Positions 2,934-58,389 of a stretch of DNA of 64,000 nucleotides are shown piece after piece. Made by a program: the position numbers and the translations under genes. Source of the stretch: Actinomycetales bacterium (GTDB lineage: Bacteria > Actinomycetota > Actinomycetes > Actinomycetales > Cellulomonadaceae); assembly GCA_020444245.1 (NCBI GenBank), contig JAHLLI010000024.1:1-64000 (forward strand). The letters are read 5' to 3'. Numbering within the stretch: position 1 is the first letter of the stretch; each line of letters begins with the position of its first letter. Under the pieces are notes generated by a model. It was not told the DNA's origin. It was given only the letters and a program-made list of their open reading frames with translations, and did not search any database.

Positions 2934-2980
2934 CACTCGTAACCCAGAGGTCGCAGGTTCGAATCCTGCCCCCGCTACCA
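2934..2980 (+). repeat. att1: 3'-half copy of initiator tRNA-fMet
   Basis: The sequence matches the anticodon stem-loop through acceptor end of actinobacterial tRNA-fMet, including the T-loop and GCTACCA end. The 5' half of the tRNA is absent, so it is not a functional gene. A 39-bp core (2940-2978) recurs at 25958-25996 and 58351-58389 with only T-loop changes. It sits directly in front of the integrase start and is best read as an attachment-site junction. The anticodon-loop base has changed (CTCGTAA instead of CTCATAA). Confidence 0.85.
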
Positions 2981-2991
2981 CGTCAGTGCAG

Positions 2992-3033
2992 GTCAGAGGT
3001 CCTTTCGATCTTCGGATCGGAAGGACCTCTGAC
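2992..3033 (+). terminator. Conserved att-associated hairpin (copy 1)
   Basis: Arms starting GTCAGAGGTCC and ending GGACCTCTGAC pair over about 19 bp around a TTCG tetraloop, with one G-T wobble. No T-run follows. It probably terminates transcription of the tRNA-fMet gene from which the att site derives. Copies follow att2 and att3, with paired base changes that keep the stem. Confidence 0.5.
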
Positions 3034-3376
3034 GTGTCGGAGTGCGTTCGGTATGCAGAAGGGCCTCTCAGACGCCCTGAAGCGCCGAATCGCCGTGCGG
3101 GGTGACCTCTGGGTTGTTCGTGGGTCGGTTGCTGCGGCCGGCGTGCAGGCGCCGCCAGTTGCCGCGCACTCTGGCATCGGAACGGCCTGCGCCCCGTGCC
3201 GATCTTCTGTGCCGCCTGGCAGGATGCGCCCGTTCGGCCGTAGCTGCGGGGGCGACACATGCCGAGCGTCGGCGGCGCGCGACCGCGGAGGCGCTGGCGG
3301 CGAGATCGCTCTCGTCGGAATCCCGTCGACCGTCGCCGAGGTCGCCTCCCGGGTGCAGTCGAGGCGAACGCTTCGA
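3034..3376. other. Island left-end sequence without a gene
   Basis: This stretch carries a single GGTATGC at 3050-3056, 110 bp past the att1 core, and a GACCTCTGGGTTGTTCGTGG segment near 3101-3121. Both recur after att2 and att3, marking a conserved island left end. I see no credible protein. Confidence 0.45.
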
Positions 3377-4450
3377 TCAGGGCGATCCGCTCGGCCTCGT
3401 AGGCCCTGTCGCGCGGAACGCGTCTCCGGCTAGCGGGTCCGCTCGGGGTGCGGTGGATTCCCGGATCACGAGGTCGGGTTTGATGGGGCGAGGGGCGCTG
3501 GAGTTCTCGCCCGACAGCTGCCCGAGCAGGAGTGAGAGGCAGGTGGTGCCCAGCTCGGAGAAGTCCGGCCGTACCGTCGTGAGCGGCGGTGCGAAGTAGC
3601 CGGCTTCGGGGACGTCGTCGAAGCCGACCACGCTCACGTCCTCCGGCACGCGCTTGCGCTCGGCCGCCAGACCGCTCAGCAGGCCAAGGGCCATCTGGTC
3701 GTTCGAGACGAAGACCGCCGTCGCGTCGGGGTCCTCGGCGATCGCGGAGGCCACTCGGTGCCCCGACTCGGCCGACCAGTCCCCGACCAGGGGCTCTCGC
3801 GCTTCGAGGCCCGCCTGCGCGAGCACGGTGCGCCACCCTCGGATGCGCGCTTGCGAGTCGAGCCAGTCCAGCGGTCCGGCGATGTGGCGGATCCCGCGGT
3901 GGCCGAGGCTGACGAGGTGCCGGGTTGCCAGTCGCGCGCCCTCGGCTTGGTCGATCGCGATGGAGTGCCCGCCGCCACGTCCGGCGGAGTCCACCGTGAC
4001 GAAGGGCACGCGGGGGGCGAGCTCGGCGAAGGCGTCAAGCATCTCCGCCTGCGGTGCGATGAGCACGATCCCGTCGATGCCGTGGTCCTGCAGGTAGTCG
4101 ACAGCGTCGCGCATGGGCTCGTGCCCGACCTCGGCGAGGTTCGCCGTGCTGAGGAAGTACCCGGCGTCGCGCGCGGCCTGCTCGATCGCGCGCTGGGTCT
4201 TGGGCGGGCCGTAGCGGCCGTTGTCGGTGGAGATGATCCCGATGGTCCGCGTCCGGCTGGTCGCCAGTGCGCGCGCGACGCGGCTGGGCCGGAAGCTGAG
4301 GTGCTCCATTGCGGCTTCGACCCGGAGCCGGGTGGCGGCGCTGATGTTCGGGTGGTCGTTGATCACGCGGGAGACGGTCTGGTGCGAGACCCCGGCGGCG
4401 CGCGCCACGTCGCGGATGGTCGGCACCTTGGCACGCCCGGCGGAATCCAT
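3377..4450 (-). CDS. LacI-family transcriptional repressor (LacI-1)
   Basis: This 357-residue protein has an N-terminal helix-turn-helix (VARAAGVSHQTVSRVIN, residues about 15-31) followed by the hinge helix and a periplasmic-binding-like sensor domain (about 65-335), ending in the typical VIRESTAPR segment. It is divergent from the importer 1/GH127 operon that starts at 4744. A LacI-type palindrome at 4579-4596, just after that operon's promoter, is the likely operator. The inducer is presumably an arabinofuranosyl sugar, inferred from the neighbouring glycosidase. The C-terminal 20 residues beyond the core are proline- and glycine-rich and probably unstructured. Confidence 0.92.
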   Translation of the reverse strand: MDSAGRAKVPTIRDVARAAGVSHQTVSRVINDHPNISAATRLRVEAAMEHLSFRPSRVARALATSRTRTIGIISTDNGRYGPPKTQRAIEQAARDAGYFLSTANLAEVGHEPMRDAVDYLQDHGIDGIVLIAPQAEMLDAFAELAPRVPFVTVDSAGRGGGHSIAIDQAEGARLATRHLVSLGHRGIRHIAGPLDWLDSQARIRGWRTVLAQAGLEAREPLVGDWSAESGHRVASAIAEDPDATAVFVSNDQMALGLLSGLAAERKRVPEDVSVVGFDDVPEAGYFAPPLTTVRPDFSELGTTCLSLLLGQLSGENSSAPRPIKPDLVIRESTAPRADPLAGDAFRATGPTRPSGSP

Positions 4451-4518
4451 GCGCCCTCCCCGTCTGGGCCGGAACGGCCGTCCAGGTCCAGTGTGGCCCC
4501 ACGAGCGGTCCGATGCGA

Positions 4519-4596
4519 ATCCGTGATCTGAGTCGATTGACAGCCGGGAGCGGGCGGTCTATCTTCGTCGCATCACGGATTGTGACCGGTAACAAT
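4519..4596 (+). promoter_or_regulatory. Promoter and LacI-1 operator of importer 1 operon
   Basis: A TTGACA -35 (4537-4542) and TATCTT -10 (4560-4565) are separated by 17 bp. The palindrome ATTGTGACCGGTAACAAT at 4579-4596 lies where it would block initiation. A perfect 9-bp inverted repeat (ATCCGTGAT at 4519-4527, ATCACGGAT at 4572-4580) also brackets the promoter. Confidence 0.7.
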
Positions 4597-4743
4597 CTGG
4601 ACGCAAAGGAGCGGTTCCCAGCGCCCGAGCAACCTACAGGACGCCGGAGGGACGGCGCGTCGAGCGCTGCCCCGAGACATTCCCCCTAGCAATTCGGTCA
4701 TCTCATTCTTGCGATGTGTCACACCCTGCGAACTGGAGCAGAC

Positions 4744-6039
4744 ATGATTCGAAGGCGAGTCCTTGCATCCATCCTCGGGACGGCTGCCGCCGCCCTGGTG
4801 CTGGCGTCCTGCGCCGGCGGCGGATCGGCCGACCCGGCCTCGTCCGGCACGGGCGCGGCGGCCGACCCCGTCACGCTGACGATGTGGACCCGGTCGGTGA
4901 CCGCGACCCAGTCGCAGGCGCTCGTGGACGCGTTCAACGCGGAGCATGAGGGCACCATCAAGGTCGAGCTGACCGTGGTCCCGTTCCAGGAGTACCTGCA
5001 GAAGGTCAGCGCGGCCGCGAGCGGCAAGAACCTGCCCGACATCCTGGCCGCGAACGTCATCGACGGCCCGAACTACGCGAACCTCGGCCTCTGGGCCGAC
5101 CTGACGGACCGCATCGCCGGGCTCGACTACGCCGACGCCCTGGCCCCGGCGCACCTGGCCTCGGCCACGGTCGGCGGCAAGACCTACGCCGTGCCGCACG
5201 TGATGGACGCCTCGGCGCTCTACTACAACAAGGTCCTCTTCCGCGCCGCGGGGCTGGACCCCGAGGCCCCGCCGACCACCCTGCAGGAGGTCGCTGACGA
5301 CGCCGCCAAGATCGCTGCGCTCGGTGACGGGATCGGCGGCCTGTACCTCCCGGGCAACTGCGGCGGGTGCCTCGCGTTCACCGTGTTCCCGTCCATCTGG
5401 GCGTCCGGCGGCACCGTGATGAACGCCGAGGGCACCGAGGCGACCCTCGACTCCGCCGAGGCGAGCTCCGTGCTAGGGATCTACCACTCGATGTGGACCG
5501 ACGGGTCGATGATCCCCGAGTCCCGCAACGAGGACGGCTCGACCCAGAACACCGCGTTCGAGTCCGGTACCGCGGGCTTCGCGCTGCTCGGCTCCAAGGC
5601 CCTGGGCACGATCGCCGAGAACGACAAGCTCGAGATCGGCGTCGCGCCGATCCCCGGTGCCGACGGAGGGACCTCGACATTCGTCGGGGGCGACGTGATC
5701 GGGATCTCGTCCACCTCGAAGAACGCCGACGCCGCGTGGACGTTCCTGTCCTGGACGCTGGACGAGAAGACCCAGCTCGACATCTTCGCGAAGGCCGGGT
5801 TCATGCCCGTCCGCACCGACCTGGCGAACAACGAGTACGCCGCGGCGGACCCCCGTGTGGTGCTGTTCAACTCCCTCGTGGCCGACGGCCAGACCCCGTA
5901 CTCGGTGCGGTTCTTCCAGACCTTCAACGACCCGCAGGGCCCGTTCCTGAGCCTCGTGCGTGACGCGGTGTTCGGCGACGGCCCGTCGACCCTGCCCGAC
6001 AACAACGCGGCGGTCACCGCCTCGCTGCAGGCCTCCTGA
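4744..6039 (+). CDS. ABC sugar transporter substrate-binding lipoprotein (importer 1)
   Basis: This 431-residue family-1 extracellular solute-binding protein captures a sugar outside the cell and delivers it to the two permeases that follow. The start is the ATG giving MIRRRVLAS, preceded by GGAG at 4735. A lipoprotein signal runs to the lipobox LASC, with lipid-modified Cys23. The mature protein begins with a Gly/Ser linker and the characteristic VTLTMWTRS strand. It is the first gene of an operon with two permeases, GH127, a cysteine hydrolase and glycerate kinase. The cargo is likely an arabinofuranosyl disaccharide, inferred from the co-transcribed GH127 enzyme. Confidence 0.92.
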   Translation: MIRRRVLASILGTAAAALVLASCAGGGSADPASSGTGAAADPVTLTMWTRSVTATQSQALVDAFNAEHEGTIKVELTVVPFQEYLQKVSAAASGKNLPDILAANVIDGPNYANLGLWADLTDRIAGLDYADALAPAHLASATVGGKTYAVPHVMDASALYYNKVLFRAAGLDPEAPPTTLQEVADDAAKIAALGDGIGGLYLPGNCGGCLAFTVFPSIWASGGTVMNAEGTEATLDSAEASSVLGIYHSMWTDGSMIPESRNEDGSTQNTAFESGTAGFALLGSKALGTIAENDKLEIGVAPIPGADGGTSTFVGGDVIGISSTSKNADAAWTFLSWTLDEKTQLDIFAKAGFMPVRTDLANNEYAAADPRVVLFNSLVADGQTPYSVRFFQTFNDPQGPFLSLVRDAVFGDGPSTLPDNNAAVTASLQAS

Positions 6040-6070
6040 CCCTCCTCACACACCGTTCGAAGGACCCACG

Positions 6071-7015
6071 ATGACCACCACCGGCGCAGTCGCTCCTCCT
6101 CGGCGCTCAGCCCTCCGGTCGTCGCGTGCTTCGACCGCGCGTTCCAGGCGCGCGGCGTGGCGGGCGTGGTTGTACGCCGCGCCCGCCACGGCGGTCCTCC
6201 TCGTGCTGTTCGTGGTACCCCTCGGCCTGGCCATCTGGATGTCGCTGTTCGACTGGCCTCTGCTGGGCCGGGCGCCGGAGCTGAACTTCCCGGAGAACTA
6301 CACGTCGATCCCGGACAACGAGCTATTCATGCGGGCCGTCGGGTTCACGGTGCGGTACACGGTGATCATCGCGGTGGTGCTGCTCGTGCTCAGCCTCGGG
6401 CTCGCCCTGCTGATCCAGGAGTCCAAGCGGCGCAGCTCCGGGGTCCTGCGCACCGCCTTCTTCCTGCCGGTCGTCACCGGCCTGACCACCGCCGCCCTGC
6501 TCTTCGTGGGGCTGCTGTCGCCCAGCGCCGGCCCGATCGACGACGTGCTCGGCTGGTTCGGGGTCCAGGTCGACTTCCTCGGCGACCCGACGATGGCAAT
6601 GGTCTCGACCGTGGTGATGATGACGTGGCGGTTCGCCGGCTTCTACATGGTGATCATGCTCACCGGCCTGCAGGCCATCCCGACCGAGCTCTACGAGGCG
6701 GCGGCGCTGGACGGCGCCTCCCGCTGGCGCTCGCTGCGCTCGGTCACGATCCCGCTCCTGCGTCCCACGCTCGCGCTCAGCGCCGTCCTCATCGTGACCG
6801 GCGGCCTCGTGGCGTTCGAGCAGTTCTACGTCCTGACCCGTGGCGGCCCCGACAACTCGACGGTGACGATGGTGATGACGATCTTCCGCGAGGCGTTCAG
6901 CCAGTTCCACCTCGGCGCCGCTGCTGCGCTCAGCGTGGTCGTGCTGCTCGGGCTCGTGCTCCTCAACGTGCTCCAGCTTCGGCTGGTGCGCGAGGACGAC
7001 GGAGCGGCGTCGTGA
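6071..7015 (+). CDS. ABC sugar transporter permease, MalF-type (importer 1)
   Basis: This 314-residue inner-membrane permease has an arginine-rich N-terminus, then about six transmembrane helices starting near residue 35 (WLYAAPATAVLLVLFVVPL). The EAA loop for docking the ATPase is present (LYEAAALDGASRWRSLRSV). The ATG at 6071 begins 31 bases after the binding-protein gene and is preferred to upstream in-frame starts, which lie inside that gene. It overlaps the next permease by 4 bases. No ATPase gene lies in the operon. Confidence 0.92.
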   Translation: MTTTGAVAPPRRSALRSSRASTARSRRAAWRAWLYAAPATAVLLVLFVVPLGLAIWMSLFDWPLLGRAPELNFPENYTSIPDNELFMRAVGFTVRYTVIIAVVLLVLSLGLALLIQESKRRSSGVLRTAFFLPVVTGLTTAALLFVGLLSPSAGPIDDVLGWFGVQVDFLGDPTMAMVSTVVMMTWRFAGFYMVIMLTGLQAIPTELYEAAALDGASRWRSLRSVTIPLLRPTLALSAVLIVTGGLVAFEQFYVLTRGGPDNSTVTMVMTIFREAFSQFHLGAAAALSVVVLLGLVLLNVLQLRLVREDDGAAS

Positions 7016-7878
7016 GCGCCGTCGTCCTGACCCGCGCCGCCGCGCCGGCGCCGGAGCGGCCGGCACCGGGCCGCGGCTCGCTGCGACGGGCCCTGCGGGT
7101 GCTCGGCCTGGTCGGCGTCCTGGTGCTCGTGGTGTTCTTCGTCGGACCGGCACTGTGGGTGGTCTGGGGCTCGATCCGCAACGGTGGGAGCTTCAGCGGC
7201 ACCAACTACTCGCGCCTGGTCTCCTACGGCGAGGGCCTGGGGATCTACCTGCTCAACACCAGCGTCGTCGTCGTGGTCACCGTGGTGCTGTCGCTGCTGG
7301 TGTCGATCTTCGCGGGGTACGCGTTCGCCCGGATGAGGTTCCCCGGCTCGAAGCTCCTGTTCGTCGGGATCCTTGCGATCTTGATGGTCCCGCACACCAG
7401 CCTGCTCATCCCGCTGTACATCTGGCTGGACCGGATCGGCCTGGGCAACTCGCTGCTGGGCGTCGCCTTCGTGATGGTCATGTACCAGATGCCCTTCTCG
7501 GTCTTCATGATGCGCAACTCGTTCGAGTCCGTGCCTCGCGAGCTCGAGGAGGCAGCCCTGATCGACGGCTGCACGACCTTCTCCAGCCTGTGGCGGGTCG
7601 TCCTGCCCGCCGTGGCGCCGGGCGCGGTGACCGTCGGGCTGTTCGCCTTCCTCGCGGCCTGGAACGAGTTCGTGACGCCGCTCATCCTGCTGAGCGACGG
7701 CAACAAGTACACGCTGCCACTCGCGCTGGTGAATCTCGTTCAGGGCGACTGGGGAATGATCGATTTCGGCGCTCTGCAAGCCGGTGTCGTGGTTTCTGCG
7801 GCGCCGTGCGTGCTGCTCTTCTTTGTCCTTCAGAAAGCATTTGTCAACGGATTCACGAACGGGGCCGTCAAGGGATGA
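7012..7878 (+). CDS. ABC sugar transporter permease, MalG-type (importer 1)
   Basis: This 288-residue permease starts at a GTG overlapping the stop of the preceding gene (GTGA), so translation is coupled. It has about six membrane helices, a GYAFARMRFPG segment and the EAA loop (LEEAALIDGCTTFSSLWRVV) typical of the second CUT1 permease. The C-terminus ends FTNGAVKG, a usual ending for this family. It also overlaps the GH127 start by 4 bases (ATGA), which ties uptake to intracellular hydrolysis. Confidence 0.92.
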   Translation: MSAVVLTRAAAPAPERPAPGRGSLRRALRVLGLVGVLVLVVFFVGPALWVVWGSIRNGGSFSGTNYSRLVSYGEGLGIYLLNTSVVVVVTVVLSLLVSIFAGYAFARMRFPGSKLLFVGILAILMVPHTSLLIPLYIWLDRIGLGNSLLGVAFVMVMYQMPFSVFMMRNSFESVPRELEEAALIDGCTTFSSLWRVVLPAVAPGAVTVGLFAFLAAWNEFVTPLILLSDGNKYTLPLALVNLVQGDWGMIDFGALQAGVVVSAAPCVLLFFVLQKAFVNGFTNGAVKG

Positions 7879-9854
7879 CCGAGATCACCACCACCCGACT
7901 CGGGGCGCCCGCGCCCGTCGAGCAGGCCGGCCTCAGCCCGGTCGTCCCTTCCACCGGGCAGCAGGTGCCCGTGCCGGCAGGCGCCGTGCGGCTGGAGGAC
8001 GGCTTCTGGTTCGAGCGCCAGCGGCTCAACACCGACACCCTCCTGGACCACTGCGACACCTGGATCGACCGGATGGGCTGGTATGACACCTTCCGGGTCG
8101 CCGCCGGCGAGGAGCCCCACAAGCCCCTCCAGGGCAAGCTGTTCACCGACGCCGACGTGTACAAGCTGCTCGAGGCCTTCGCCTGGGAGCTCGCCCAACG
8201 CCCCGACCCAGACCGGGAGGCGCGCTTCGCCGAGCTGGCCCGGCTCGTGGCGGCCGCCCAGGGCGACGACGGCTACCTCAACACCTACTTCGGTCCCAAG
8301 GGCGAGGAGACGCGGTACACCAACCTCGCCCACGGGCACGAGCTGTACTGCGCCGGCCACCTGTTCCAGGCCGCCGTCGCGCGGCTGCGCAGCGGCAAGG
8401 AGGACGACCTCACCCGGGCCGCGCTGCGGCTGGCGGACCGGATCTGCGAGGACTTCGGCGTGGGCGGGCGCGAGGGGTCCGACGGCCATCCCGAGGTCGA
8501 GATGGGGCTGATGGAGCTCTACCGTGCGACCGGTCGAGTGCGGTACCTCGAGCAGGCGCGGCGGTTCATCGACCAGCGCGGCCACCGGACGTTCCAGCAC
8601 CACCCGATCGGTCACGAGTACTACCTGGACGACATGCCCGTGCGGGACGCGACAGTGCTGCGCGGCCACGTCGTGCGAGCCATGTACCTGACCGCGGGCG
8701 CCGTCGATGTGGCGGTCGAGACCGGTGACGACCAGCTGCTGGGAGCCCTGGCGACCCAGTGGGAGAACACCTGGGCGCGGCGCACCTACCTCACCGGAGG
8801 GATGGGTTCGCGGCACCTGGGCGAGTCCTTCGGCCGCGACTTCGAGCTCCCGCCCGACCGGGCGTACACCGAGACCTGTGGTGCCGTCGGCTCGGTCATG
8901 GCGGCGTGGCGCCTGCTGCTCGCCACCGGCGAGGCGCAGTACGCCGACGCGATCGAGCGGCTGCTCTACAACATGATCGCGACCTCTCCCAACGCCGAGG
9001 GCGACCGGTTCTTCTACGTCAACCCCCTCCTGCAGCGCGAGCCTGGCATCGCGACCGAGCCGGGCGAGGCGCCCTTCCGCAAGGACACGCTGCGGGCCAA
9101 CTGGTTCTGGGTCTCGTGCTGTCCCACGAACGTGGTGCGCACCCTCGCCTCGCTCACCGGCTACTTCGCCACCGTGTCCGACGGCTCACTGACCGTCCAG
9201 CAGTACTTCGACGGGACGATCGACACCCGGCTGGAGGACGGCCGTCCGGTCGCCCTGCGGGTGCGCACCGAGTACCCATGGCAGGGCAGGGTCGAGGTCA
9301 CGGTGGCCTCGAGCCCCGGGCGGTTCCGGCTGCGGCTCCGCGTCCCGTCGTGGGCGGGTGCGGCCACGGTCACCGTGGGTGGCGTCACCACGCCGGTCCA
9401 GGGGCCCTACGCCGAGCTCGAGCGTGTGTGGTCCGACGGCGACGTCGTGGTGCTCGACCTGCCGATGCCGGCGGTGGTGCTCCAGCCCGATGCGCGCATC
9501 GACGCGCTACGGGACACCGTCGCCGTGCAGCGTGGCCCACTGGTCTACTGCGCGGAGTCCGTGGTCGAGGCGGCCGACGCCGTGGACCTGGACCGGTTCC
9601 GCCTCGACGTGGCCGGCGACCTCGAGGTCCGCGAGGCCGCGGGCCCCAGCGACGTGCGAGCGACGGTCCGCGCGACGGGCGTGATCGCCCCGGCCGAGCC
9701 CGACGGCGCCTGGCCCTACCGCCCGGTCACGGCCGCGGCATCGAGCCCCGCCGACGAGAAGGTCGCGATCGACCTCATCCCCTACTACGCGTGGTCCAAC
9801 CGAGGCCCGTCGACCATGCGCGTGTGGATCCCCAGCGCCTCAGCCGAGCGCTGA
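7875..9854 (+). CDS. GH127 beta-L-arabinofuranosidase
   Basis: This 659-residue protein matches glycoside hydrolase family 127, zinc-thiolate retaining beta-L-arabinofuranosidases such as Bifidobacterium HypBA1. Key residues are present: Glu317 (acid/base position), Glu333 and Cys335 in ETC, and the Cys415-Cys416 pair in SCCPTN. The Glu-to-Glu spacing of 16 equals that of HypBA1 (E322/E338). An (alpha/alpha)6 barrel fills about residues 35-440 and beta domains follow. No signal peptide is seen, so it acts in the cytoplasm on imported oligosaccharides. It overlaps the permease stop by 4 bases. The likely product is L-arabinose, with beta linkages as in extensin or arabinan ends; the exact linkage is an inference. 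Confidence 0.9.
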   Translation: MTEITTTRLGAPAPVEQAGLSPVVPSTGQQVPVPAGAVRLEDGFWFERQRLNTDTLLDHCDTWIDRMGWYDTFRVAAGEEPHKPLQGKLFTDADVYKLLEAFAWELAQRPDPDREARFAELARLVAAAQGDDGYLNTYFGPKGEETRYTNLAHGHELYCAGHLFQAAVARLRSGKEDDLTRAALRLADRICEDFGVGGREGSDGHPEVEMGLMELYRATGRVRYLEQARRFIDQRGHRTFQHHPIGHEYYLDDMPVRDATVLRGHVVRAMYLTAGAVDVAVETGDDQLLGALATQWENTWARRTYLTGGMGSRHLGESFGRDFELPPDRAYTETCGAVGSVMAAWRLLLATGEAQYADAIERLLYNMIATSPNAEGDRFFYVNPLLQREPGIATEPGEAPFRKDTLRANWFWVSCCPTNVVRTLASLTGYFATVSDGSLTVQQYFDGTIDTRLEDGRPVALRVRTEYPWQGRVEVTVASSPGRFRLRLRVPSWAGAATVTVGGVTTPVQGPYAELERVWSDGDVVVLDLPMPAVVLQPDARIDALRDTVAVQRGPLVYCAESVVEAADAVDLDRFRLDVAGDLEVREAAGPSDVRATVRATGVIAPAEPDGAWPYRPVTAAASSPADEKVAIDLIPYYAWSNRGPSTMRVWIPSASAER

Positions 9855-9876
9855 CCGCCCCTCAGGAAGGAACGGC

Positions 9877-10512
9877 ATGACCATCCCCGCTGACTCGACC
9901 GCCATCGTCCTCATCGAGCCGCAGAACGACTTCCTGTCCCCGGGCGGGACGATGTACACCTACATCGCCGAGCAGCTGGCGAGCCGGGGTGTGATCGGCA
10001 ACCTCCAAAGGCTCCTCGCGGCAGCTCGCGAGAAGGGCATCCGGATCATGTACGTGCCCTTCCACCCCTTCGACGTCGGCTTCCCCGAGCTCAAGCCCGG
10101 AGGCCCGGCCGTCGAGGGCCTGCGCGGCGTGGAGATGGACATGAAGGCCGACTGGGGCACCGGCGCGTGGCTGCGCGGCACGCCCGGGCCCGAGATCATC
10201 CCCGAGCTCACGCCGCAGCCCGGCGACATCGTGATCGAGGGCAAGAAGACGCTCGACGCGTTCCACTCGACAGCCCTGGACTACCTGCTGCGCGCGAACC
10301 AGATCGAGCACGTCGCCTTCACCGGCTTCCACACCAACTGGTGCGTGGAGTCCAGCGCCCGTTCCGCCTACGACAAGGGCTACCGGGTGACCGTCCTGGC
10401 CGACTGCACCGCCACCGACACCGAAGAGGAGCAGTCCTACGCCGAGCGGATCATCTTCCCCAAGATCGGCAAGGTCACCACGTCGGAGGACTTCCTCGCC
10501 GGTGTCGCCTGA
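9877..10512 (+). CDS. Isochorismatase-family cysteine hydrolase
   Basis: This 211-residue protein shows the isochorismatase-like triad: Asp18 in PQNDF, Lys123/Lys124 in EGKKTLDAF, and Cys156 in NWCVES, with the FTGFHTNWCVE signature of cysteine hydrolases (amidases, nicotinamidases). It lies 22 bases after GH127 and overlaps the glycerate kinase by 11 bases, so it belongs to the same operon. The substrate cannot be read from sequence. A role on an amide or ester released with the sugar is only a guess, and its presence in an arabinofuranosidase operon is unusual. Confidence 0.85.
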   Translation: MTIPADSTAIVLIEPQNDFLSPGGTMYTYIAEQLASRGVIGNLQRLLAAAREKGIRIMYVPFHPFDVGFPELKPGGPAVEGLRGVEMDMKADWGTGAWLRGTPGPEIIPELTPQPGDIVIEGKKTLDAFHSTALDYLLRANQIEHVAFTGFHTNWCVESSARSAYDKGYRVTVLADCTATDTEEEQSYAERIIFPKIGKVTTSEDFLAGVA

Positions 10513-11638: not shown

Positions 11639-11828
11639 ACGCCCCTACCCCCTCGTTGTGCGAGACCGCCACGACAGCTCCTAGACACCGCGGACAGTAC
11701 CGGGCCTAGCGAGGCGGAGGGACTTGGCCGGCGCGGTGGCGGTGAGCTGGCCACCGGAAGGCGACGTCAAGCAGTTCGGCCTGTCCGGGGCCATGCCCCT
11801 CGGCCATCGGAGACTGGCGAGCCTCGGC

Positions 11829-12860: not shown

Positions 12861-12914
12861 CGCTTCTCCTTTGCTCGGCGGTGACGGCCGAAAACCATGT
12901 CGATAGTAGGGGTG

Positions 12915-12959
12915 TTGACCTGTCGTGTCGAGCATGCTAGCGTCCCGAAAAGGGTTTCG
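12915..12959 (+). promoter_or_regulatory. Promoter and LacI-2 operator of importer 2 operon
   Basis: TTGACC (12915-12920) and TAGCGT (12938-12943) are 17 bp apart. The imperfect palindrome CGAAAAGGGTTTCG at 12946-12959 follows at once and would overlap the transcription start. It lies in the divergent gap between LacI-2 and importer 2. Confidence 0.6.
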
Positions 12960-13091
12960 TGGAGTTTCGCCAGTGTCGACGAACGGTCGGCGTCGGACGC
13001 CCCAGTAGCCCAAGACCAGCACGTCATCTCCATCGACGAGGACGGACACCGTGCGCGGGGCGTCCCCGTCCGAACCAGAGGAGTCGTTCGG

Positions 13092-14374: not shown

Positions 14375-14379
14375 GCCCC

Positions 14380-14420: not shown

Positions 14421-14456
14421 GTTCACCACCGTCCGGGACCGATGAAGGGCACCACG

Positions 14457-45872: not shown

Positions 45873-45912
45873 CTAGCCTTTCAGCAGGGTGTGCCCCGAC
45901 GAGGAGGTCGAC

Positions 45913-52171: not shown

Positions 52172-53181
52172 TCCCGTCCCCGGGCGGCCGGGGACGCGTG
52201 GGCGGTGGAGCCGCGCACGACCAGCTCGACGCCGAGCTGCTCGCGGGCCGGAGGCGTCGGCCCGGCGGGTGCGGCGCCCGGCTGGATCGCGGCCTCGGCA
52301 GCGACCATGAGGTCGACTGCGCGCCGGCCCACCGCGCGCAGCGGCAGCGCCACGGTGGTGAGCGGCGGGTTCACCAGGGCCGCCGCGGGTACGTCGTCGA
52401 AGCCGATCACGGACATCTGCTCGGGCACCCGCACCCCCCGGGTGCGGAGCTGCTCGAGGACTCCCATCGCGACGAGGTCGTTGTAGGCCACCACAGCCGT
52501 CGCCGACGAGCCGAGGGCGAGGTCTGCCGCCGCCACGCCCCTGGCGGCCACCGGCCGTCCCGGTCCCAGGTCGACGACGGTGAGGCCGTCGACGGCCCCG
52601 AACGCGTCCCGGCGGCGCGCGTCGGACCACGACGACGCGGGTCCGCCCGCGTAGGCGACGGTCCGGTGGCCGAGCGCGCGAAGGTGCTCGAGCGCCTGGC
52701 GAACCCCGTCCGCGTTGTCCACGCTCACCGACGGGACGCCGTCGAGCTCCCGGTTGACCAGGACCCCGCGGCCGGCGCCCACCTCGGTCCGCAGGTGCTC
52801 CGCCGGCATGCGGGGCGAGCAGAGGATCACCCCGTCGACCTGCTCTCGCAGCTGGGTGACGACGTCCAGCTCGATGAGCGGGTCCTCCTCGGTGTCCGCG
52901 ACCAGGACGTTGCGGCCGAGCTCGCGGGCCCGCGCCTGCACGCCCTTGGCGATGCTCGCGAAGAAGGGGTTGGCGAGGTCAGGCAGGACCAGGCCGAGGT
53001 GTCCGGAGCGGCCGCTGCGCAACGCTCGGGCAACGGGGTTCACCCGGTACCCGAGCTGGGCCGCGGCCCGCAGCACGCGCTCCCGGCCGACGGTCGCGAC
53101 CGACGTCGGACCGGAAAGCGCACGTGACGCGGTCGCCGGGGAGACGCCCGCCGCCGCGGCGACATCCTTCAGCGTGACCAT
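52168..53181 (-). CDS. LacI-family repressor of uronate genes (LacI-6)
   Basis: This 337-residue repressor begins MVTLKDVAAAAGVSPATASRAL, the usual LacI N-terminus. GGAGG lies 7 bases before the ATG; a GTG two codons earlier is an alternative. It heads the leftward operon with the reductase, UxaA and SGNH hydrolase and is divergent from uxaC. The shared intergenic region probably holds its operator. Confidence 0.9.
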   Translation of the reverse strand: MVTLKDVAAAAGVSPATASRALSGPTSVATVGRERVLRAAAQLGYRVNPVARALRSGRSGHLGLVLPDLANPFFASIAKGVQARARELGRNVLVADTEEDPLIELDVVTQLREQVDGVILCSPRMPAEHLRTEVGAGRGVLVNRELDGVPSVSVDNADGVRQALEHLRALGHRTVAYAGGPASSWSDARRRDAFGAVDGLTVVDLGPGRPVAARGVAAADLALGSSATAVVAYNDLVAMGVLEQLRTRGVRVPEQMSVIGFDDVPAAALVNPPLTTVALPLRAVGRRAVDLMVAAEAAIQPGAAPAGPTPPAREQLGVELVVRGSTAHASPAARGRE

Positions 53182-53202
53182 CGACACCCCTCCCGGCTCA
53201 TG

Positions 53203-53239
53203 ATTCTAGAGGAAGATGATATCGATTGCACCCGGTGCA
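53203..53239. promoter_or_regulatory. Divergent control region between LacI-6 and uxaC
   Basis: On the minus strand TAGAAT (53203-53208) is a plausible -10 for LacI-6. Beside it are GATATCGAT and a perfect odd-centred palindrome TGCACCCGGTGCA (53227-53239). Which of these is the LacI-6 operator is unclear. Confidence 0.35.
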
Positions 53240-53378
53240 GGCACTGGCGTTTCGGCGCGGCCCTACTGGCCATATGCCCTTTGCGCGGCACCATCCGCTG
53301 TGCGAGGATGTCGATACCCGTGATTGCGGTGAAATCGAATGCATCACGTGGCCGCCCGACCGAGGAGGACGAGGCCTC

Positions 53379-54809
53379 ATGCGCCGGTGGGAGCTGCACC
53401 CGGATCGCGCCCTCCCGGCCGAGGAGCGGGTCCGGGAGCTTGCAAGGGCGATCCTCGAGACCACGGTGGGCCTGCCGGTCGTCTCGATGCACGGGCACGT
53501 CGAGGCTGAGGTCTTCGCCCGCGACGAGCCGTTCAGCGACCCGGCGCGGCTCCTTGTCGTGCCGGACCACTACGTCGTCCGGATGCTCGTGTCCCAAGGC
53601 GTCCCGCACGACGCGCTGGGTGTGCCGCGCAGCGACGGAGTCGCGGTCGAGAGCGACCCGCGCGAGATCTGGCGCACGTTCGCGGCGCACTGGCACCTGT
53701 TCCGGGGGACCCCGAGCAGGTTCTGGCTCGAGCACGTGCTGATCGAGATCTTCGGTGTCGAGCAGCGGCTCTCCGCCGAGACCGCCGACGCCGCCTACGA
53801 CACCATCGCCGGACGGCTCGCCACGCCTGAGTTCAGGCCGCTCGCGCTGCTCAACAGGTTCGACATCGAGCTCATCGCGACCACCGACTCTGCGGAGTCG
53901 GACCTCGGCCACCACGCCTCGCTCGCCTCGCGCGGCTGGGGCGATCGGATCGTGCCAACTTTCCGGCCGGACGGTCTGGTGCACCTCGACCGCCCGTCGT
54001 GGACCGACGACGTGGCGCTGCTCGGGCGTCGGTCGGGCGTCGAGGTGAACTCCTACAGGACTTTCCTCGACGCGCTCCGGGAGCGGCGGGCGGCGTTCGT
54101 CGCAGCCGGGGCTCGCGCGACGGACCACGGGCACGTCACCGCGGCCACCGCACCCCTCGAGGACGCTGAGGCCGAGGCGATCTTCGCGACCGCGCTGCGC
54201 GGCGAGGTCACCGCGGCGCAGGCGGCGGCGTTCTCCGGCCACATGCTGCTCCAGATGGCCCGGATGTCGTGCGACGACGGCCTCGTGATGCAGCTGCACA
54301 CCGGGGTCCTCCGCGACTACGACCCGGCGGTGCTGGCCGCCAGGGGCCCGGACGTGGGCTACGACATCCCGCTCGCTACCGAGTACACCCGGGCACTGCG
54401 GCCCCTGCTGGAACGCCTCGGGCACCATCCCGCCCTGACGCTCGTGCTCTTCACCGTGGACGAGGACGCCTACAGCCGTGAGCTCGCGCCTCTGGCGGGC
54501 GTGTACCCGGCGGTCCGGCTCGGCGCACCGTGGTGGTTCCTGGACACACCTGACGCGATGCGGCGATTCCGTGAGGCGGTCACCGACACGGCCGGCTTCT
54601 ACAATACGACGGGCTTCGTCGACGACACGCGTGCCTTCCTGTCCATCCCGGCGCGGCACGACCTGGCGCGCCGGGTCGACGCCGGGCACCTGGCCCGGCT
54701 CGTCGCCGAGCATCGGCTCGACCTGGACGAGGCTCACGAGCTCGCCCGCGAGCTCGCCTACGACCTGCCCCGGCAAACCTACCCGGCGAAGGTGAGGGTG
54801 CACGCGTGA
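53379..54809 (+). CDS. uxaC: Uronate isomerase (glucuronate/galacturonate isomerase)
   Basis: This 476-residue amidohydrolase-fold protein matches UxaC. It interconverts D-glucuronate/D-fructuronate and D-galacturonate/D-tagaturonate. The metal-binding His38-x-His40 lies in SMHGHVEA; RFWLEHVLIEIFG, GLVMQLHTGVLRDY and GAPWWFLDTPDAMRRF are conserved family segments. The ATG follows GAGGAGGACGAGG and puts the HxH motif at the usual distance. It overlaps the next gene by 4 bases and heads the rightward uronate operon. Confidence 0.95.
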   Translation: MRRWELHPDRALPAEERVRELARAILETTVGLPVVSMHGHVEAEVFARDEPFSDPARLLVVPDHYVVRMLVSQGVPHDALGVPRSDGVAVESDPREIWRTFAAHWHLFRGTPSRFWLEHVLIEIFGVEQRLSAETADAAYDTIAGRLATPEFRPLALLNRFDIELIATTDSAESDLGHHASLASRGWGDRIVPTFRPDGLVHLDRPSWTDDVALLGRRSGVEVNSYRTFLDALRERRAAFVAAGARATDHGHVTAATAPLEDAEAEAIFATALRGEVTAAQAAAFSGHMLLQMARMSCDDGLVMQLHTGVLRDYDPAVLAARGPDVGYDIPLATEYTRALRPLLERLGHHPALTLVLFTVDEDAYSRELAPLAGVYPAVRLGAPWWFLDTPDAMRRFREAVTDTAGFYNTTGFVDDTRAFLSIPARHDLARRVDAGHLARLVAEHRLDLDEAHELARELAYDLPRQTYPAKVRVHA

Positions 54810-56248
54810 GTGGCGCCGACCAGAACCCGACCGCACCCCCGTCGCGGCACACCACGCCCGACGCGGGGGTGATCCCTCGGTTCGCCGATCCCGCGCCCGA
54901 CCGGCCACGCCGCCGCTATGCGGTGGTCGGCACCGGCCACCGGGCCGGGATGTACGTCGCGGCCCTGGAGGGCGACCACGCCGACGTCGGTGAGCTGGTG
55001 GCCTGGTGCGAGCCCAACCCGGGTCGCATCGACGTCTACGACGCCGAGGTCGGGCGGGCCCGCGGGCTGCCGGGCACCGCCGGTCTGCCGCGGTACGGCC
55101 CCGATGGGCTCGAGGCGATGGTCGCCGAGCAGGACGTCGACGTCGTCGTCGTCACCCTCCTGGACCGCCTGCACGCGGAGATGGTCGACCGCGCGCTGCG
55201 GGCGGGTGCGGACGTCGTCGTGGAGAAGCCGCTCACCATCGACGCGGACGGCTGCCGGCGGATCGTGCGGGCGCTGGCCGACACCGGCCGTGACCTCGTG
55301 ATGACGTTCAACTACCGCTACGCCCCGCGGAACTCGACCCTGCGTCAGGTGATCGCGTCCGGGGCGATCGGCGACGTCACGAGCGTGCACTTCGAGTGGG
55401 CGCTCGACACGGTGCACGGGGCCGACTACTTCCGGCGCTGGCACCGGCAGAAGGCGAACTCGGGCGGCCTGATCGTCCACAAGTCCAGCCACCACTTCGA
55501 CCTGGTCAACTGGTGGATCGACGACGTGCCGGAGCGGGTGTACGCGCGTGGCGGCCTGAAGTTCTACGGCGCCGACAACGCCAGGGCGCGCGGCCTGTGG
55601 CCACGCCCGGAGCGCGGCACGGGGGCGGTGGACGACCCATTCTCGCTCGACCTGCGCGACGACCCCCGCCTCGAGGCGCTGTACCTGGACGCCGAGCAGC
55701 ACGACGGCTATCGGCGCGACGGCGACCCGTTCGCCGAGGGCATCACGATCGAGGACAACCTCGGCTTGGTGGTCGACTACCGCCGCGGCGCACTGCTGAC
55801 CTACTCGCTCAACGCGCACAGCCCGTGGGAGGGCTACCGGGTCACGGTCAACGGCACGCGGGGCCGGGCGGAGCTCGAGGTGGTCGAGCGCGGCGCGGTC
55901 ATCCCCGACGAGCACGGCAAGGTCGTGCTCGACCCGTCGGCCACGCCAGGGGCCGACGCGGGGGCCCACGTGCGGCCCGAGGGCGAGCGCCTGCTCGTGC
56001 AGCAGCACTGGCGGGAGGCCGAGGAGGTCGCGATCCCGTCGGGCATCGGCGGGCACGGCGGTGGCGACGCCATCCTGCTCATGGACGTCTTCCGCCGCGA
56101 CCTGCGCGTCGGCGACGACCCGCTGGGGCGTGCCGCGGGGTACCGGGACGGTCTGCGGGCGGTCGCGGTGGGTATCGCGGCGAACCGCTCCCTGGCGACC
56201 GGGCAGCCGGTGGACATCGCCGACCTGGAACTCGGCGAGGAGCTCTGA
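54806..56248 (+). CDS. Gfo/Idh/MocA-family oxidoreductase
   Basis: This 480-residue protein has an N-terminal Rossmann domain (YAVVGTGHRAGMYVAAL; catalytic Lys in VEKPLT) and a C-terminal alpha/beta domain with SSHHFDLVNWWIDD. It starts at a GTG overlapping uxaC by 4 bases. The family includes NAD(P)-dependent sugar and uronate dehydrogenases and glycosidase-like enzymes. It lies between uxaC and KDPG aldolase, so it probably acts on a uronate or its derivative. The reaction is unknown. Confidence 0.85.
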   Translation: MSGADQNPTAPPSRHTTPDAGVIPRFADPAPDRPRRRYAVVGTGHRAGMYVAALEGDHADVGELVAWCEPNPGRIDVYDAEVGRARGLPGTAGLPRYGPDGLEAMVAEQDVDVVVVTLLDRLHAEMVDRALRAGADVVVEKPLTIDADGCRRIVRALADTGRDLVMTFNYRYAPRNSTLRQVIASGAIGDVTSVHFEWALDTVHGADYFRRWHRQKANSGGLIVHKSSHHFDLVNWWIDDVPERVYARGGLKFYGADNARARGLWPRPERGTGAVDDPFSLDLRDDPRLEALYLDAEQHDGYRRDGDPFAEGITIEDNLGLVVDYRRGALLTYSLNAHSPWEGYRVTVNGTRGRAELEVVERGAVIPDEHGKVVLDPSATPGADAGAHVRPEGERLLVQQHWREAEEVAIPSGIGGHGGGDAILLMDVFRRDLRVGDDPLGRAAGYRDGLRAVAVGIAANRSLATGQPVDIADLELGEEL

Positions 56249-56256
56249 GCGACTTC

Positions 56257-56904
56257 GTGGCGCAGGACGCGATCGAGCAGCTCGGCACCCACCGGCTGGT
56301 GCCCGTCCTGGTGCTGGACGACGCCGCGCGCGCCGACGGCCTGGCGGGGGCCCTCGTCGACGGCGGCCTGCCGGTCGCGGAGGTGACCTTCCGCACCGCC
56401 GCGGCCGAGGAGTCGATCCGGGTCATGGCGGCGCGCGGCGACGTGCTCGTGGGCGCCGGAACGGTGGTCAGCGTGGACCAGGTCGAACGCGCAGTGGCTG
56501 CCGGCGCCCGCTTCGTCGTGTCGCCGGGTCTGTCGCGCGCCGTGGTCGAGAGGTGCCACGAGCGCGGGATCCCGGTGCTGCCCGGGGCGGTGACCGCCAC
56601 TGAGGTGCAGCAATCGCTCGAGCTCGGCGTGTCGACCGTCAAGTTCTTCCCCGCGGGCACCGCCGGGGGTGCGCCGGCGATCGCCGCGCTGTCCGCCCCG
56701 TTCGGCGGCGTGCGATTCGTCCCCACGGGCGGGGTCGGGCCGAGCGATCTCGCCGCGTATCTCGCGTTGCCGTGCGTGCACGCGGTCGGCGGTTCCTGGA
56801 TGGCGCCTCGGGACCTGGTCGCGGCCGGCGACTGGGCGACGCTGCGCGCAGCCGTTGCGGACGCGGTCCGCCTCGTGAACGGACGCCGTCGCGATGAGCC
56901 ATGA
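56257..56904 (+). CDS. eda: KDPG/KHG aldolase
   Basis: This 215-residue class I aldolase splits 2-keto-3-deoxy-6-phosphogluconate to pyruvate and glyceraldehyde-3-phosphate. Glu42 and Arg46 in AEVTFRT and the Schiff-base Lys129 in STVKFFPAG match E. coli Eda positions 45 and 133. The GTG at 56257 is chosen as the only ordinary start near the N-terminus, although GAGGAG lies rather far upstream (about 15 bases). It overlaps the sugar kinase by 11 bases. Confidence 0.92.
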   Translation: MAQDAIEQLGTHRLVPVLVLDDAARADGLAGALVDGGLPVAEVTFRTAAAEESIRVMAARGDVLVGAGTVVSVDQVERAVAAGARFVVSPGLSRAVVERCHERGIPVLPGAVTATEVQQSLELGVSTVKFFPAGTAGGAPAIAALSAPFGGVRFVPTGGVGPSDLAAYLALPCVHAVGGSWMAPRDLVAAGDWATLRAAVADAVRLVNGRRRDEP

Positions 56905-58006
56905 CCCGCCGGTCCGGCCGCGTGCCGCGTCCGAGTGCCGGTTCGATGAGATCTCCCTGGGCGAGGTGATGCTCCGCCTCGACCCCGGGGAAGGGCGCAT
57001 CCGCACCGCCCGGGAGTTCCGCGTCTGGGAGGGCGGCGGCGAATACAACGTCGCCCGTGGGCTGAGCCGTGCCTTTGGCCTGCGGACCGGCGTGATCACC
57101 GCGCTCGCAGACAACGAGATCGGCCGGTTGGTCGAGGGACTCATTCTGGCGGGTGGCGTGGACAGCTCGTTCGTGTCCTGGTCGCCCTACGACGGTGTAG
57201 GCCGCGAGGCGCGTAACGGCCTCAACTTCACAGAGCGCGGGTTCGGGGTGCGTGGTGCGCTCGGGGTCTCCGACCGCGGCCTCACGGCCGCGTCGCAGCT
57301 GCGCGCACAGGACGTCGACCTGGACCACCTCTTCGGCGAGCTCGGCGTGCGCTGGCTGCACACCGGCGGGATTTTCGCCGCGCTCTCCGACACTGCCGCG
57401 GAGACGACGCTGGCCGCGGTACGGACCGCGCGGCGCCACGGGACCGTGGTCTCTTACGACCTCAACTACCGGGCGAGCCTGTGGCGGGCGACCGGGGGGC
57501 GTCCGCGCGCCCAGGAGGTCAACCGCGAGATCGCGCCGTACGTCGACGTCATGATCGGCAACGAGGAGGACTTCACCGCCGCACTCGGCTTCGAGGTGCC
57601 GGGGACCGACGCGTCGTTTGCCGAGCTCGACGTGCGCGGCTTCACATCCATGATCGACTCGGTCGCGGCGGCCTACCCGAACCTGATCGTGATCGCGACC
57701 ACGCTGCGCGCGGTGCGCAGCGCCACGATCAACGACTGGGGCGCGCTGGCCTGGTCGCCAGGCGCCGGCGTGGTACGGGCGACGCAGCGCGACAGGCTGG
57801 AGATCTGCGACCGCGTCGGCGGCGGGGACTCCTTCGCATCGGGGCTGATCGCCGCGCTCCTGGAGGGGGAAGGACTCGACACTGCTGTGGAGTGGGGTGC
57901 CGCGCACGGGGCGCTCGCGATGACCACGCCGGGGGACACCTCCATGGCCAGCCGCGCCGAGATCGTCAGGCTGGCCGGTGGGGGTGGCGCGCGGGTCGAC
58001 CGGTGA
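56894..58006 (+). CDS. kdgK: 2-keto-3-deoxygluconate kinase (PfkB family)
   Basis: This 370-residue PfkB-family kinase has an N-terminal GEVMLRLDPGEG segment, GGGEYNVARGLSRAFG substrate-binding loop and catalytic Asp312 in VGGGDSFASGL (the family's usual GAGD appears as GGGD). It would phosphorylate KDG made by UxaA, feeding Eda next door. It overlaps eda by 11 bases and closes the uronate operon. The N-terminal 17 residues extend beyond the family norm. Confidence 0.88.
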   Translation: MSHDPPVRPRAASECRFDEISLGEVMLRLDPGEGRIRTAREFRVWEGGGEYNVARGLSRAFGLRTGVITALADNEIGRLVEGLILAGGVDSSFVSWSPYDGVGREARNGLNFTERGFGVRGALGVSDRGLTAASQLRAQDVDLDHLFGELGVRWLHTGGIFAALSDTAAETTLAAVRTARRHGTVVSYDLNYRASLWRATGGRPRAQEVNREIAPYVDVMIGNEEDFTAALGFEVPGTDASFAELDVRGFTSMIDSVAAAYPNLIVIATTLRAVRSATINDWGALAWSPGAGVVRATQRDRLEICDRVGGGDSFASGLIAALLEGEGLDTAVEWGAAHGALAMTTPGDTSMASRAEIVRLAGGGGARVDR

Positions 58007-58077
58007 CGGGATGGTGGGCTCGGCCGGGGGCGACTGCGTCGCCTCGGCCCTGACGGGCTCGGTCAGGGGTCGGGCTG

Positions 58078-58192
58078 CGAAGGTTTGGGGCAAACCCCGC
58101 GCGGGTGGAGACCTCGATGTGCCGCGGGCGTCGCGGTAGGAGGCGGTGTGCCGCTCCTTGCCGTCGCGTGCGGATGAGCACCCAGCTCGTGC
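58078..58192 (-). pseudogene. Deleted integrase remnant (island C)
   Basis: The minus strand reads DGKERHTASYRDA, matching integrase residues about 10-23. It then jumps to HIEVSTRAG in another frame, matching about residues 77-85 of the intact integrase. An internal segment of roughly 55 codons and everything after about residue 90 are missing. DNA upstream of the start, including both GGTATGC motifs, is well conserved. Confidence 0.75.
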
Positions 58193-58209
58193 TCGCCGTG
58201 CCCGCTGGC

Positions 58210-58227
58210 GGTATGCGTTTGGTATGC
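58210..58227. promoter_or_regulatory. Paired GGTATGC arm-type sites, att3 left arm
   Basis: GGTATGC occurs at 58210 and 58221, 11 bp apart. The pair starts 141 bp before the att3 core (58351), as at att1 and att2. Confidence 0.55.
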
Positions 58228-58345
58228 AGACGCGGGTGGACCCGGGTGGACTCCTACGTATCAGTCTGGAGACTCTCGACGCGCTGACCTGCACGAATGC
58301 TGGTATCGCCGCTGGTCAGCGGGCTGCGATCGGGCGACCGCCACG

Positions 58346-58389
58346 TCTTATAACCCAGAGGTCGCAGGTTCAAATCCTGCCCCCGCTAC
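58346..58389 (+). repeat. att3: 3'-half copy of tRNA-fMet
   Basis: This is the third copy of the tRNA-fMet 3' segment. Here the anticodon loop reads CTTATAA and the T-loop TTCAAAT, as in native tRNA-fMet. The 5' half is missing and the acceptor end reads GCTACTTG. It marks the right junction of island C. Confidence 0.85.

What the first reader, a model, noticed from the sequence alone, without database searches (positions are those of the whole stretch)
2934..58389. Three tRNA-fMet 3' fragments mark a tandem array of catabolic islands
A 39-bp segment of the initiator tRNA 3' half occurs at 2940, 25958 and 58351, always in the same orientation and always without its 5' half. Each copy has integrase-gene DNA on its left and a conserved left-end sequence on its right. 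The spacers are large and filled with unrelated sugar-catabolism modules. The simplest reading is successive integration of related elements at one initiator-tRNA gene, building a modular polysaccharide-use region. The intact tRNA would lie to the left of the window.
Basis: partly seen in the sequence, partly recalled or inferred. Interest (0 to 1): 0.85.

Follow-up and report, generated by a model that had tools for sequence, protein, structure and literature searches.

The report
Tandem gene islands at initiator tRNA
A bacterium related to Cellulomonas appears to have stacked several mobile gene islands, some of them for sugar use, one behind another at its single start-tRNA gene, and related genomes show a comparable island present or absent with sharp edges at the tRNA-derived repeats.

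Summary
Three initiator-tRNA 3' fragments lie in one orientation (0 expected by chance), each followed by the same element-type hairpin. The assembly contains the intact tRNA-fMet, on another contig, and four more fragments; the last is followed by a native-type hairpin, as at an empty site. Summed contig parts reach 197 kb; contig joins are inferred. An empty site (G012) aligns with both flanks of a 126-kb array in G013. A 13.85-kb att-to-att element is 99.78% identical in three species whose tRNA flanks are 80-88% identical. G015 shares the preceding 40 kb with G011 but lacks it.

Corrections: the array is not purely catabolic (conjugative, metal-resistance and Kdp cargo outside the window). 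Only 2 of 7 fragments have an intact integrase beside them. One operon each in islands B and C is a 90-91% copy of an operon elsewhere in the assembly.

Kind: site-specific accretion at a tRNA gene, already known. New here: a Cellulomonadaceae tRNA-fMet family that I did not find reported in the rows my paper searches listed, and evidence that one element lineage loads onto displaced tRNA fragments rather than the tRNA. Excision and transfer are inferred.

The parts
1..55 (.). End of an insertion sequence; 100% identical to the left end of contig C4. Its opposite end closes contigs C41 and C3 on the right.
1662..2777 (-). Intact tyrosine recombinase (371 aa), start codon 158 nt from the att core; probably the integrase of the conjugative unit whose other end is at tRNA-fMet on contig C41 (join inferred)
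   Evidence: Pfam Phage_integrase 4.4e-26 and Phage_int_SAM_3 1.3e-8; 67% identical to a second intact integrase, C4:48858-50039
2799..2817 (+). Paired GGTATGC repeats, candidate arm-type integrase sites (further copies at 3050, 25817, 26069, 58210, 58221, 58462)
   Evidence: role inferred
2936..2978 (+). att core 1: initiator-tRNA 3' half, 41/43 to the intact tRNA (anticodon CGT, A57G)
2986..3036 (+). Element left-end hairpin (terminator-like, no U tract), -38.6 kcal/mol, z -9.6
2979..25953 (.). Island B (core-to-core 23,018 bp): three sugar ABC importers, three LacI regulators, two GH127, a GH1-like and a GH51-like enzyme, isochorismatase, glycerate kinase
   Evidence: 'GH51-like' rests on an Alpha-L-AF_C match
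18387..25545 (+). Operon of island B, 91.1% identical and colinear to C21:182559-189712 of the same assembly
21753..23073 (+). 1,321-bp exact identity to the C21 copy inside the 91% background (gene conversion or assembly artefact)
25954..25996 (+). att core 2, 41/43 (anticodon CGT, A58G)
26005..26056 (+). Element left-end hairpin, -37.6 kcal/mol
25997..58346 (.). Island C (core-to-core 32,393 bp): glucuronoyl-esterase-like protein with carbohydrate-binding modules, rhamnose operon, LutABC, GH5, uronate and 2-keto-3-deoxy-gluconate pathway, one ABC importer, three LacI regulators
31391..39995 (+). Rhamnose plus LutABC operon, 90.4% identical and colinear to C12:104042-112642 of the same assembly
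   Evidence: its 3' part also
58074..58180 (-). Integrase N-terminal remnant
58347..58389 (+). att core 3, 42/43 (C34T in the anticodon)
58398..58449 (+). Element left-end hairpin, -41.7 kcal/mol
58390..64000 (.). Start of island D (core-to-core 8,575 bp, ending at C3:66922): GFO/IDH/MocA oxidoreductase, xylose-isomerase-like TIM-barrel protein, ABC importer; sugar-phosphate isomerase and ROK protein beyond the window

Best explanation
The window is an interior part of an att-bounded array that starts at the only full initiator tRNA gene found (C41:39397-39471) in a Cellulomonadaceae assembly. A tyrosine integrase exchanges strands within the first 24 nt of the 43-nt core, a stretch that begins with the anticodon loop. 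Integration gives the gene the element's own copy of the 3' half plus an element-borne hairpin, and moves the old 3' half and the native hairpin to the far end. Repeated integration of related elements leaves one 3' fragment per boundary. The first unit looks conjugative (TrwC relaxase, TraG coupling protein). Several later units have no integrase and are CIME-like cargo modules that an integrase in trans or a neighbour in cis could still move. Shown by sequence: the fragments, the intact tRNA, the two kinds of hairpin, an empty site in a relative, near-identity of a 13.85-kb att-to-att unit in three species, and remnants of integrases. Inferred: the C41-C3-C4-C11 order, function of the arm sites and hairpins, excision, and conjugative or cis-mobilised transfer.
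For: Seven fragments and one intact tRNA, all on the + strand of their contigs. Shared IS ends link C41-C3-C4. Element hairpin after the tRNA in 13 of 13 genomes for which I read both a tRNA and a fragment, and native-type hairpin after the last fragment read in 11 of 13 (exceptions G017 and G023). Empty site G012 against filled G013. 13.85-kb unit 99.78% identical in G011, G013 and G016. Integrase-att linkage: 12 of 15 examined integrase relatives have the core 149-163 nt from the integrase start. Conjugation genes on C41.
Against: Contig joins are inferred, and a circular C3-IS molecule is not excluded. The assembly has 3.34% contamination. The C4-C11 gap is unseen. Islands B to D have no full integrase gene beside their right-hand core, so their mobility rests on analogy. 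No island of the window was found att-bounded in another genome: no match of at least 80% and 700 bp between C3 and the eleven relative loci compared, eight of them arrays. In G017 and G023 the far end with the native hairpin was not found.
Confidence: 0.9

Rival explanations
1. Elements integrate only at the intact tRNA, so the order from distal to proximal is simply old to new; the distal 13.85-kb unit is older in each host than everything between it and the tRNA.
For: Default model for tRNA-targeting islands. G011, G013 and G016 could each have acquired proximal units later from diverged donors; one 8.3-kb proximal stretch of G011 and G016 is itself 99.0% identical.
Against: The unit's lineage carries A instead of C at tRNA position 56 in its left core in 4 of 4 genomes (G011, G013, G016, G220), each time at a fragment. 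Each of these genomes shows one full tRNA-fMet, which such an insertion would have damaged. The unit is 99.78% identical across three species, while shared proximal stretches are about 90-99%. G015 shows the same 40.4-kb upstream stretch without it.
Confidence: 0.3
2. Contig C3 (the window) comes from a co-assembled relative or is a separate replicon, so its islands are not part of this genome's array.
For: 3.34% contamination; two operons 90-91% identical to other contigs; exact 1.3-kb stretch; C3's two ends carry the two ends of one IS, so a circle is possible.
Against: The IS ends are 100% identical to those of C41 and C4. Only one full tRNA-fMet was found in the assembly. Three of the four boundaries on C3 match the left end beside the tRNA on C41 at 91-95% over about 100-124 nt, core included.
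Confidence: 0.1
3. The fragments are a dispersed repeat or decayed tRNA genes unrelated to islands.
For: The fragments in the window carry changes that should spoil an initiator tRNA (anticodon, position 58).
Against: The copies start at the anticodon loop, share arms and hairpins on both sides, lie in one orientation downstream of the tRNA, and mark presence/absence junctions in relatives.
Confidence: 0.01
4. The 90-91% operons of islands B and C are internal duplications of this genome's own operons rather than imports.
For: 90-91% identity to C12 and C21, closer than any hit of two gene probes in 150 family genomes (best other hits 77% and 85%); exact runs suggesting recombination between copies.
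Against: Both operons show about the same divergence, as expected for one donor species. The LacI gene beside the rhamnose operon is only 73% identical. In the two 20-kb stretches searched (3000-22999 and 38400-58340), nothing else in the assembly exceeds 80% over 500 bp.
Confidence: 0.25

Closest known systems
Dehalococcoides ssrA genomic islands (PMC3146451; passages seen)
   Same: Multiple tandem islands downstream of one RNA gene, delimited by 3'-end direct repeats, respiration cargo (rdhA), 15 units without an integration module, CIME/accretion proposed there.
   Different: Serine recombinase at tmRNA with a 20-bp repeat there; tyrosine integrase at initiator tRNA with a 43-nt core here. 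Element-borne hairpin, sugar and metal cargo and a conjugative first unit here.
ICE/IME/CIME accretion (review PMC5704250; passages seen)
   Same: Decay to att-bounded CIMEs and later integration of an incoming element at a resident att site; cis-mobilisation.
   Different: Seven fragments in one inferred array; integration at a displaced fragment inferred from a core that should spoil the tRNA.
Additive flexible genomic islands and tycheposons of Methylophilaceae (PMC10872708; passages seen)
   Same: [quoted passage not shown] a tRNA-Met island with a tyrosine recombinase.
   Different: Different organisms, target sequence and cargo; no conjugative unit mentioned in the passages seen.
Actinomycete ICEs (PMC3218068; passages seen)
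   Same: Tyrosine integrases at tRNA 3' ends; tandem pairs; one tRNA-Met target noted in Frankia.
   Different: A TrwC relaxase and TraG coupling protein on C41 here; longer arrays; no occurrence of 'Cellulomonas' in that paper's main text.

Membership tests
tRNA-targeted tyrosine-integrase genomic island | Target tRNA regenerated intact at one end, 3' fragment displaced to the other | tested here: met
   both on one contig in G008, G011, G013, G015, G016, G030, G220; on separate contigs in this assembly
tRNA-targeted tyrosine-integrase genomic island | Tyrosine integrase gene next to an att site | tested here: met
   Intact at 2 of 7 fragments in this genome; 12 of 15 relatives examined
tRNA-targeted tyrosine-integrase genomic island | Empty site in relatives | tested here: met
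   G012 versus G013; G002 also has a native-type hairpin directly after the tRNA
CIME / accretion composite | att-bounded units lacking integrase and transfer genes | tested here: met
   Islands B and C: no integrase or transfer domain among their called proteins (all 49 called window genes scanned with Pfam; count checked; the integrase at 1662-2777 belongs to the unit to the left); only a vestige or remnant
CIME / accretion composite | Excision and cis-mobilised transfer | not testable with these tools
   Needs circle PCR and mating
ICE (unit 1, C41 into C3) | Relaxase, coupling protein and integrase in one element | tested here: inconclusive
   TrwC 2.2e-80 and TraG-D_C 2e-27 on C41, integrase at C3:1662-2777; in one element only if the C41-IS-C3 join is right
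ICE (unit 1, C41 into C3) | Complete mating-pair formation system | tested here: inconclusive
   10 proteins of C41 scanned and 1; 4 of the 10 had no Pfam match
AICE | Single FtsK-like translocase instead of relaxase and coupling protein (definition recalled) | tested here: not met
   TrwC relaxase and TraG present on C41; absence of an FtsK-like protein not exhaustively tested
Integron | attC sites and one IntI at the array head (definition recalled) | tested here: not met
   Sites are tRNA 3' halves; integrases lie at unit ends. The top PDB sequence hit is IntI4, E 2e-10, over residues 168-355, which is not membership. No attC search was run.

The most novel reading that the evidence does not exclude
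The array is an open-ended cassette platform in which displaced tRNA fragments, not the essential tRNA, are the landing sites for some elements. An element lineage whose att core would spoil the sole initiator tRNA (A56) has spread between species while living only at fragments, so earlier islands create the niche for later ones and shield the tRNA.
Probability: 0.4. Interest if true: 0.65.

Novelty: new member of a known kind. Interest (0 to 1): 0.5.

Why it matters
It gives a natural record of how tRNA-targeted islands accumulate: empty site, one unit, several units, loss of integrases, and near-identical single units in different species with edges at the att cores. It links part of the sugar-use repertoire in this family to one integration hotspot. 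The A56 lineage offers a sequence-level test of whether displaced att fragments, rather than the tRNA gene, take new elements.

Tried and rejected
Rejected: chance repeats; dispersed repeat; the ARAGORN tRNA-Ala at 9581-9673 as a target gene, since it lies inside the GH127 reading frame; integron membership; a known phage or plasmid integrase, since the best places in all matched records are under 60% identical (670 plasmid and 2,194 phage records). I suspected a core gene inside the last unit because C11 starts in a pyruvate-dehydrogenase E1 gene; it is a second copy (the other is on C12), and its closest relative, in G008, lies on another contig than that genome's array.

Led nowhere or limited: Rfam at gathering threshold found nothing in the window. 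One gene probe each from islands B and C across 150 family genomes found only diverged homologues, apart from second copies in this assembly. Paper searches for Cellulomonas islands, initiator tRNA, tRNA-fMet, Actinotalea and polysaccharide-use ICEs showed no report of these arrays in the rows listed: 4 of 4, 20 of 57, 15 of 793, 12 of 50,195 and 8 of 26. Four more searches on accretion, tycheposons and tRNA sublocations were used for comparison. For PMC4057263 I saw the outline and abstract only. Structure prediction was not used.

Rows dropped or not followed: 3 of 18 integrase loci had no usable upstream DNA, and L108 had only 84 nt yet is counted as a miss; L107 and L112 are true misses. 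Alignments under the length or identity limits set in each script were not shown. Counts ignore gapped copies (one in G014 is missed) and use the per-genome tables, because the match lists were cut; the reversed-pattern control was 0 in every row. Fragments listed or counted but never read: G009:C374, G014:C34, and those of G024, G033, G054, G085 and G160; G024, G033 and G054 are shorter or poorer matches in other genera and were not tested against my reading.
Full report
WHAT WAS CHECKED. The window is bases 1-64,000 of contig C3 (74,946 bp) in a 4.41-Mb, 44-contig assembly, 99.4% complete with 3.3% contamination. The three tRNA fragments are present, in one orientation, with zero expected by chance.

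THE REST OF THE ARRAY. Searching the own assembly gave the intact tRNA-fMet at C41:39397-39471 and four more fragments, at C3:66922, C4:23028, C4:50189 and C11:2994. A pattern count shows one full tRNA-fMet in it. C41 and C3 end on the right with the same IS end, and C3 and C4 begin with the other end of that IS, each at 100%; four other contig ends carry a 94% version. The simplest order is C41-IS-C3-IS-C4, with C11 carrying the last fragment and what follows the array. Summed contig parts from the tRNA to the C11 fragment come to 197.4 kb; the C4-C11 gap is unseen. Core-to-core unit lengths are 23,018 and 32,393 bp in the window, and 8,575 bp for the unit that runs out of it.

ANATOMY OF A BOUNDARY. 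Left of the cores lie related attP-arm sequences; in 5 of 7 they include GGTATGC repeats. The 43-nt core runs from the 7-nt anticodon loop CTCATAA to just past the acceptor stem. To the right is a strong hairpin without a U tract (-37.6 to -41.7 kcal/mol for the three in the window). The tRNA in this assembly is followed by that same element hairpin. C11:2994 is followed instead by a different, native-type hairpin (-33.0 kcal/mol), and a related one follows the tRNA directly in G002. C4:23028 is the exception inside the array: an insertion sits directly against it. Integration therefore appears to swap the tRNA's 3' half and its terminator-like hairpin for the element's, and to move the native ones to the far end.

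INTEGRASES. Two intact tyrosine integrases, 67% identical, sit at C3:1662-2777 and C4:48858-50039, reading away from the core. Beside the seven fragments, 2 have an intact gene, 1 has a clear remnant (C3:58347), and 4 have no detectable gene-length remnant; at 25954 only arm DNA and a 16-nt vestige remain. Two further remnants, at C4:27175-27333 and C4:68504-68698, are not beside a full core. Among 18 relatives of the integrase in named records, 15 had upstream DNA to examine, and 12 of these have the tRNA-fMet core at 41-43 of 43 positions, 149-163 nt from the integrase start.

EMPTY AND FILLED SITES. G012 has the tRNA followed directly by a native-type hairpin. Its left flank aligns with the left flank of G013 (77% over 4.9 kb), and its right flank with the DNA beyond G013's last fragment (78% over 1.4 kb), with 125.8 kb of array between them in G013. 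Among the 16 same-genus genomes whose tRNA locus was printed, 13 have an element hairpin and 3 a native-type one (G002, G010, G012). Among 200 family genomes, 15 have more cores than full tRNAs: 8 of 19 in this genus and 7 of 181 outside it; the reversed-pattern control is 0 throughout (gapped copies missed). This assembly has the most surplus cores of the 200.

UNITS CAN MOVE ONE AT A TIME. A 13.85-kb att-to-att unit is 99.78% identical between G016 and each of G011 and G013 (5-6 substitutions plus small gaps), while the chromosomal left flanks of the three are about 80-88% identical. Between G011 and G013 the match starts one base before the core and stops at the core end; in the two comparisons with G016 it differs from that by 1-3 bases, except that G011-G016 runs 43 bases on into their similar native hairpins. 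The upstream neighbour in G013 has no match of at least 80% and 700 bp in G011 or G016. G015 shares the preceding 40.4 kb with G011 at 97.3%, ending at the core end, and then goes straight into the native hairpin: a clean absence. G220 carries a 92-96% version with about 20 kb inserted. Ten of the unit's 13 called proteins in G016 were scanned: efflux, redox and regulator genes and the integrase, no transfer domain. A metal-resistance module in this assembly (C4:27382-48858) is 92-99% identical to array DNA in G011, G015 and G016.

LANDING ON FRAGMENTS. In all four carriers the left core of this unit reads GGTTAAAATCC instead of GGTTCAAATCC, a C-to-A change at tRNA position 56. The 14 intact tRNAs in the list, and that of G030, keep C. 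C56 pairs with G19 in tRNA folding (established knowledge, recalled). Because the distal core of the unit has C, the crossover lies 5' of this position, so integration into the tRNA would have put A56 into the only full tRNA-fMet found in G011, G013, G016 and G220. The simplest reading is that the unit entered at displaced fragments. The rival, insertion at the tRNA followed by a second insertion that restored it, needs a damaged intermediate in each lineage. Integration of an incoming element at a resident att site is already described for streptococcal elements (PMC5704250, passages).

CARGO OF THE WINDOW. All 49 called window genes were scanned against Pfam (gene calls, count checked). Island B holds three ABC sugar importers, two GH127, a GH1-like and a GH51-like enzyme. 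Island C holds a glucuronoyl-esterase-like protein with carbohydrate-binding modules, a rhamnose operon, LutABC, GH5, and a uronate/2-keto-3-deoxy-gluconate pathway. Island D holds an importer and sugar-phosphate enzymes. Outside the window the array has conjugation genes (TrwC, TraG), what looks like inositol catabolism, metal resistance and Kdp. 'Catabolic' is right for the window, not for the array.

SECOND COPIES. Island B 18387-25545 is 91.1% identical and colinear with C21:182559-189712; island C 31391-39995 is 90.4% identical and colinear with C12:104042-112642. In 150 family genomes the best other hits to one gene probe from each were 77% and 85%. dN/dS is 0.05-0.33 for 13 of 14 gene pairs; the remaining pair is identical. 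A 1,321-bp exact run in B and three runs of 167-364 bp in C suggest recent exchange between copies, or assembly error. Similar divergence of both operons favours import from one unsampled sister species over two separate duplications (inference).

COMPARISON AND VERDICT. The nearest known systems are the Dehalococcoides ssrA islands (passages), ICE/CIME accretion (passages), and additive islands with repeated tRNA-Lys ends (passages). This is the same kind: a new member, with an integrase family and target for Cellulomonadaceae that I did not find described in the rows listed by my searches. The evidence for fragment loading is its most interesting part.

Noticed in passing
window 21753-23073: 1,321 bp exactly identical to contig C21 inside a 91% background: recent gene conversion or an assembly artefact.
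   Followed up: partly
window 13092-14374: A solute-binding protein gene is split into two overlapping reading frames (13092-13853 and 13832-14374), as if frameshifted.
   Followed up: no
window 9581-9673: ARAGORN reports a 93-nt tRNA-Ala inside the GH127 gene; probably spurious (no Rfam match).
   Followed up: partly
L022 (C10:~261202-261276) and L023 (C15:44926): A parallel case: intact tRNA-Pro(GGG) followed by a similar CAGGTCAGAGGCCC stretch, and a tRNA-Pro-like 3' fragment near a distant integrase (27% identity) on another contig.
   Followed up: no
L019:8504-8865 (C4:~68504-68865): Integrase N-terminal remnant and attP arm, but the core is cut after CTCAT: a scar that starts near the presumed crossover.
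   Followed up: partly
C4:~23076-24362: A transposase-bearing insertion sits directly against the att core at C4:23028, with an 18-bp repeat of the core end on each side (C4:23058-23075 and 24363-24380).
   Followed up: partly
C4:22636-23075 and C11:2602-3041: 440 bp up to and including the att core are 99.5% identical at two different unit ends in the same assembly.
   Followed up: no
L020:5144-7854 (C11): A RimK-like module 93-94% identical in G001 and G008, more than their tRNA left flanks (77-86%), so possibly mobile too.
   Followed up: partly
L158:1520 (G013:C168): A second native-flanked att with its own integrase on a small contig of G013; mixed strains or a second copy.
   Followed up: no
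G024:C34:349785, G033:C1:3000828, G054:C1:1930: Shorter tRNA-fMet 3' matches in other genera that were not read; G024's lies about 15 kb from its tRNA.
   Followed up: no
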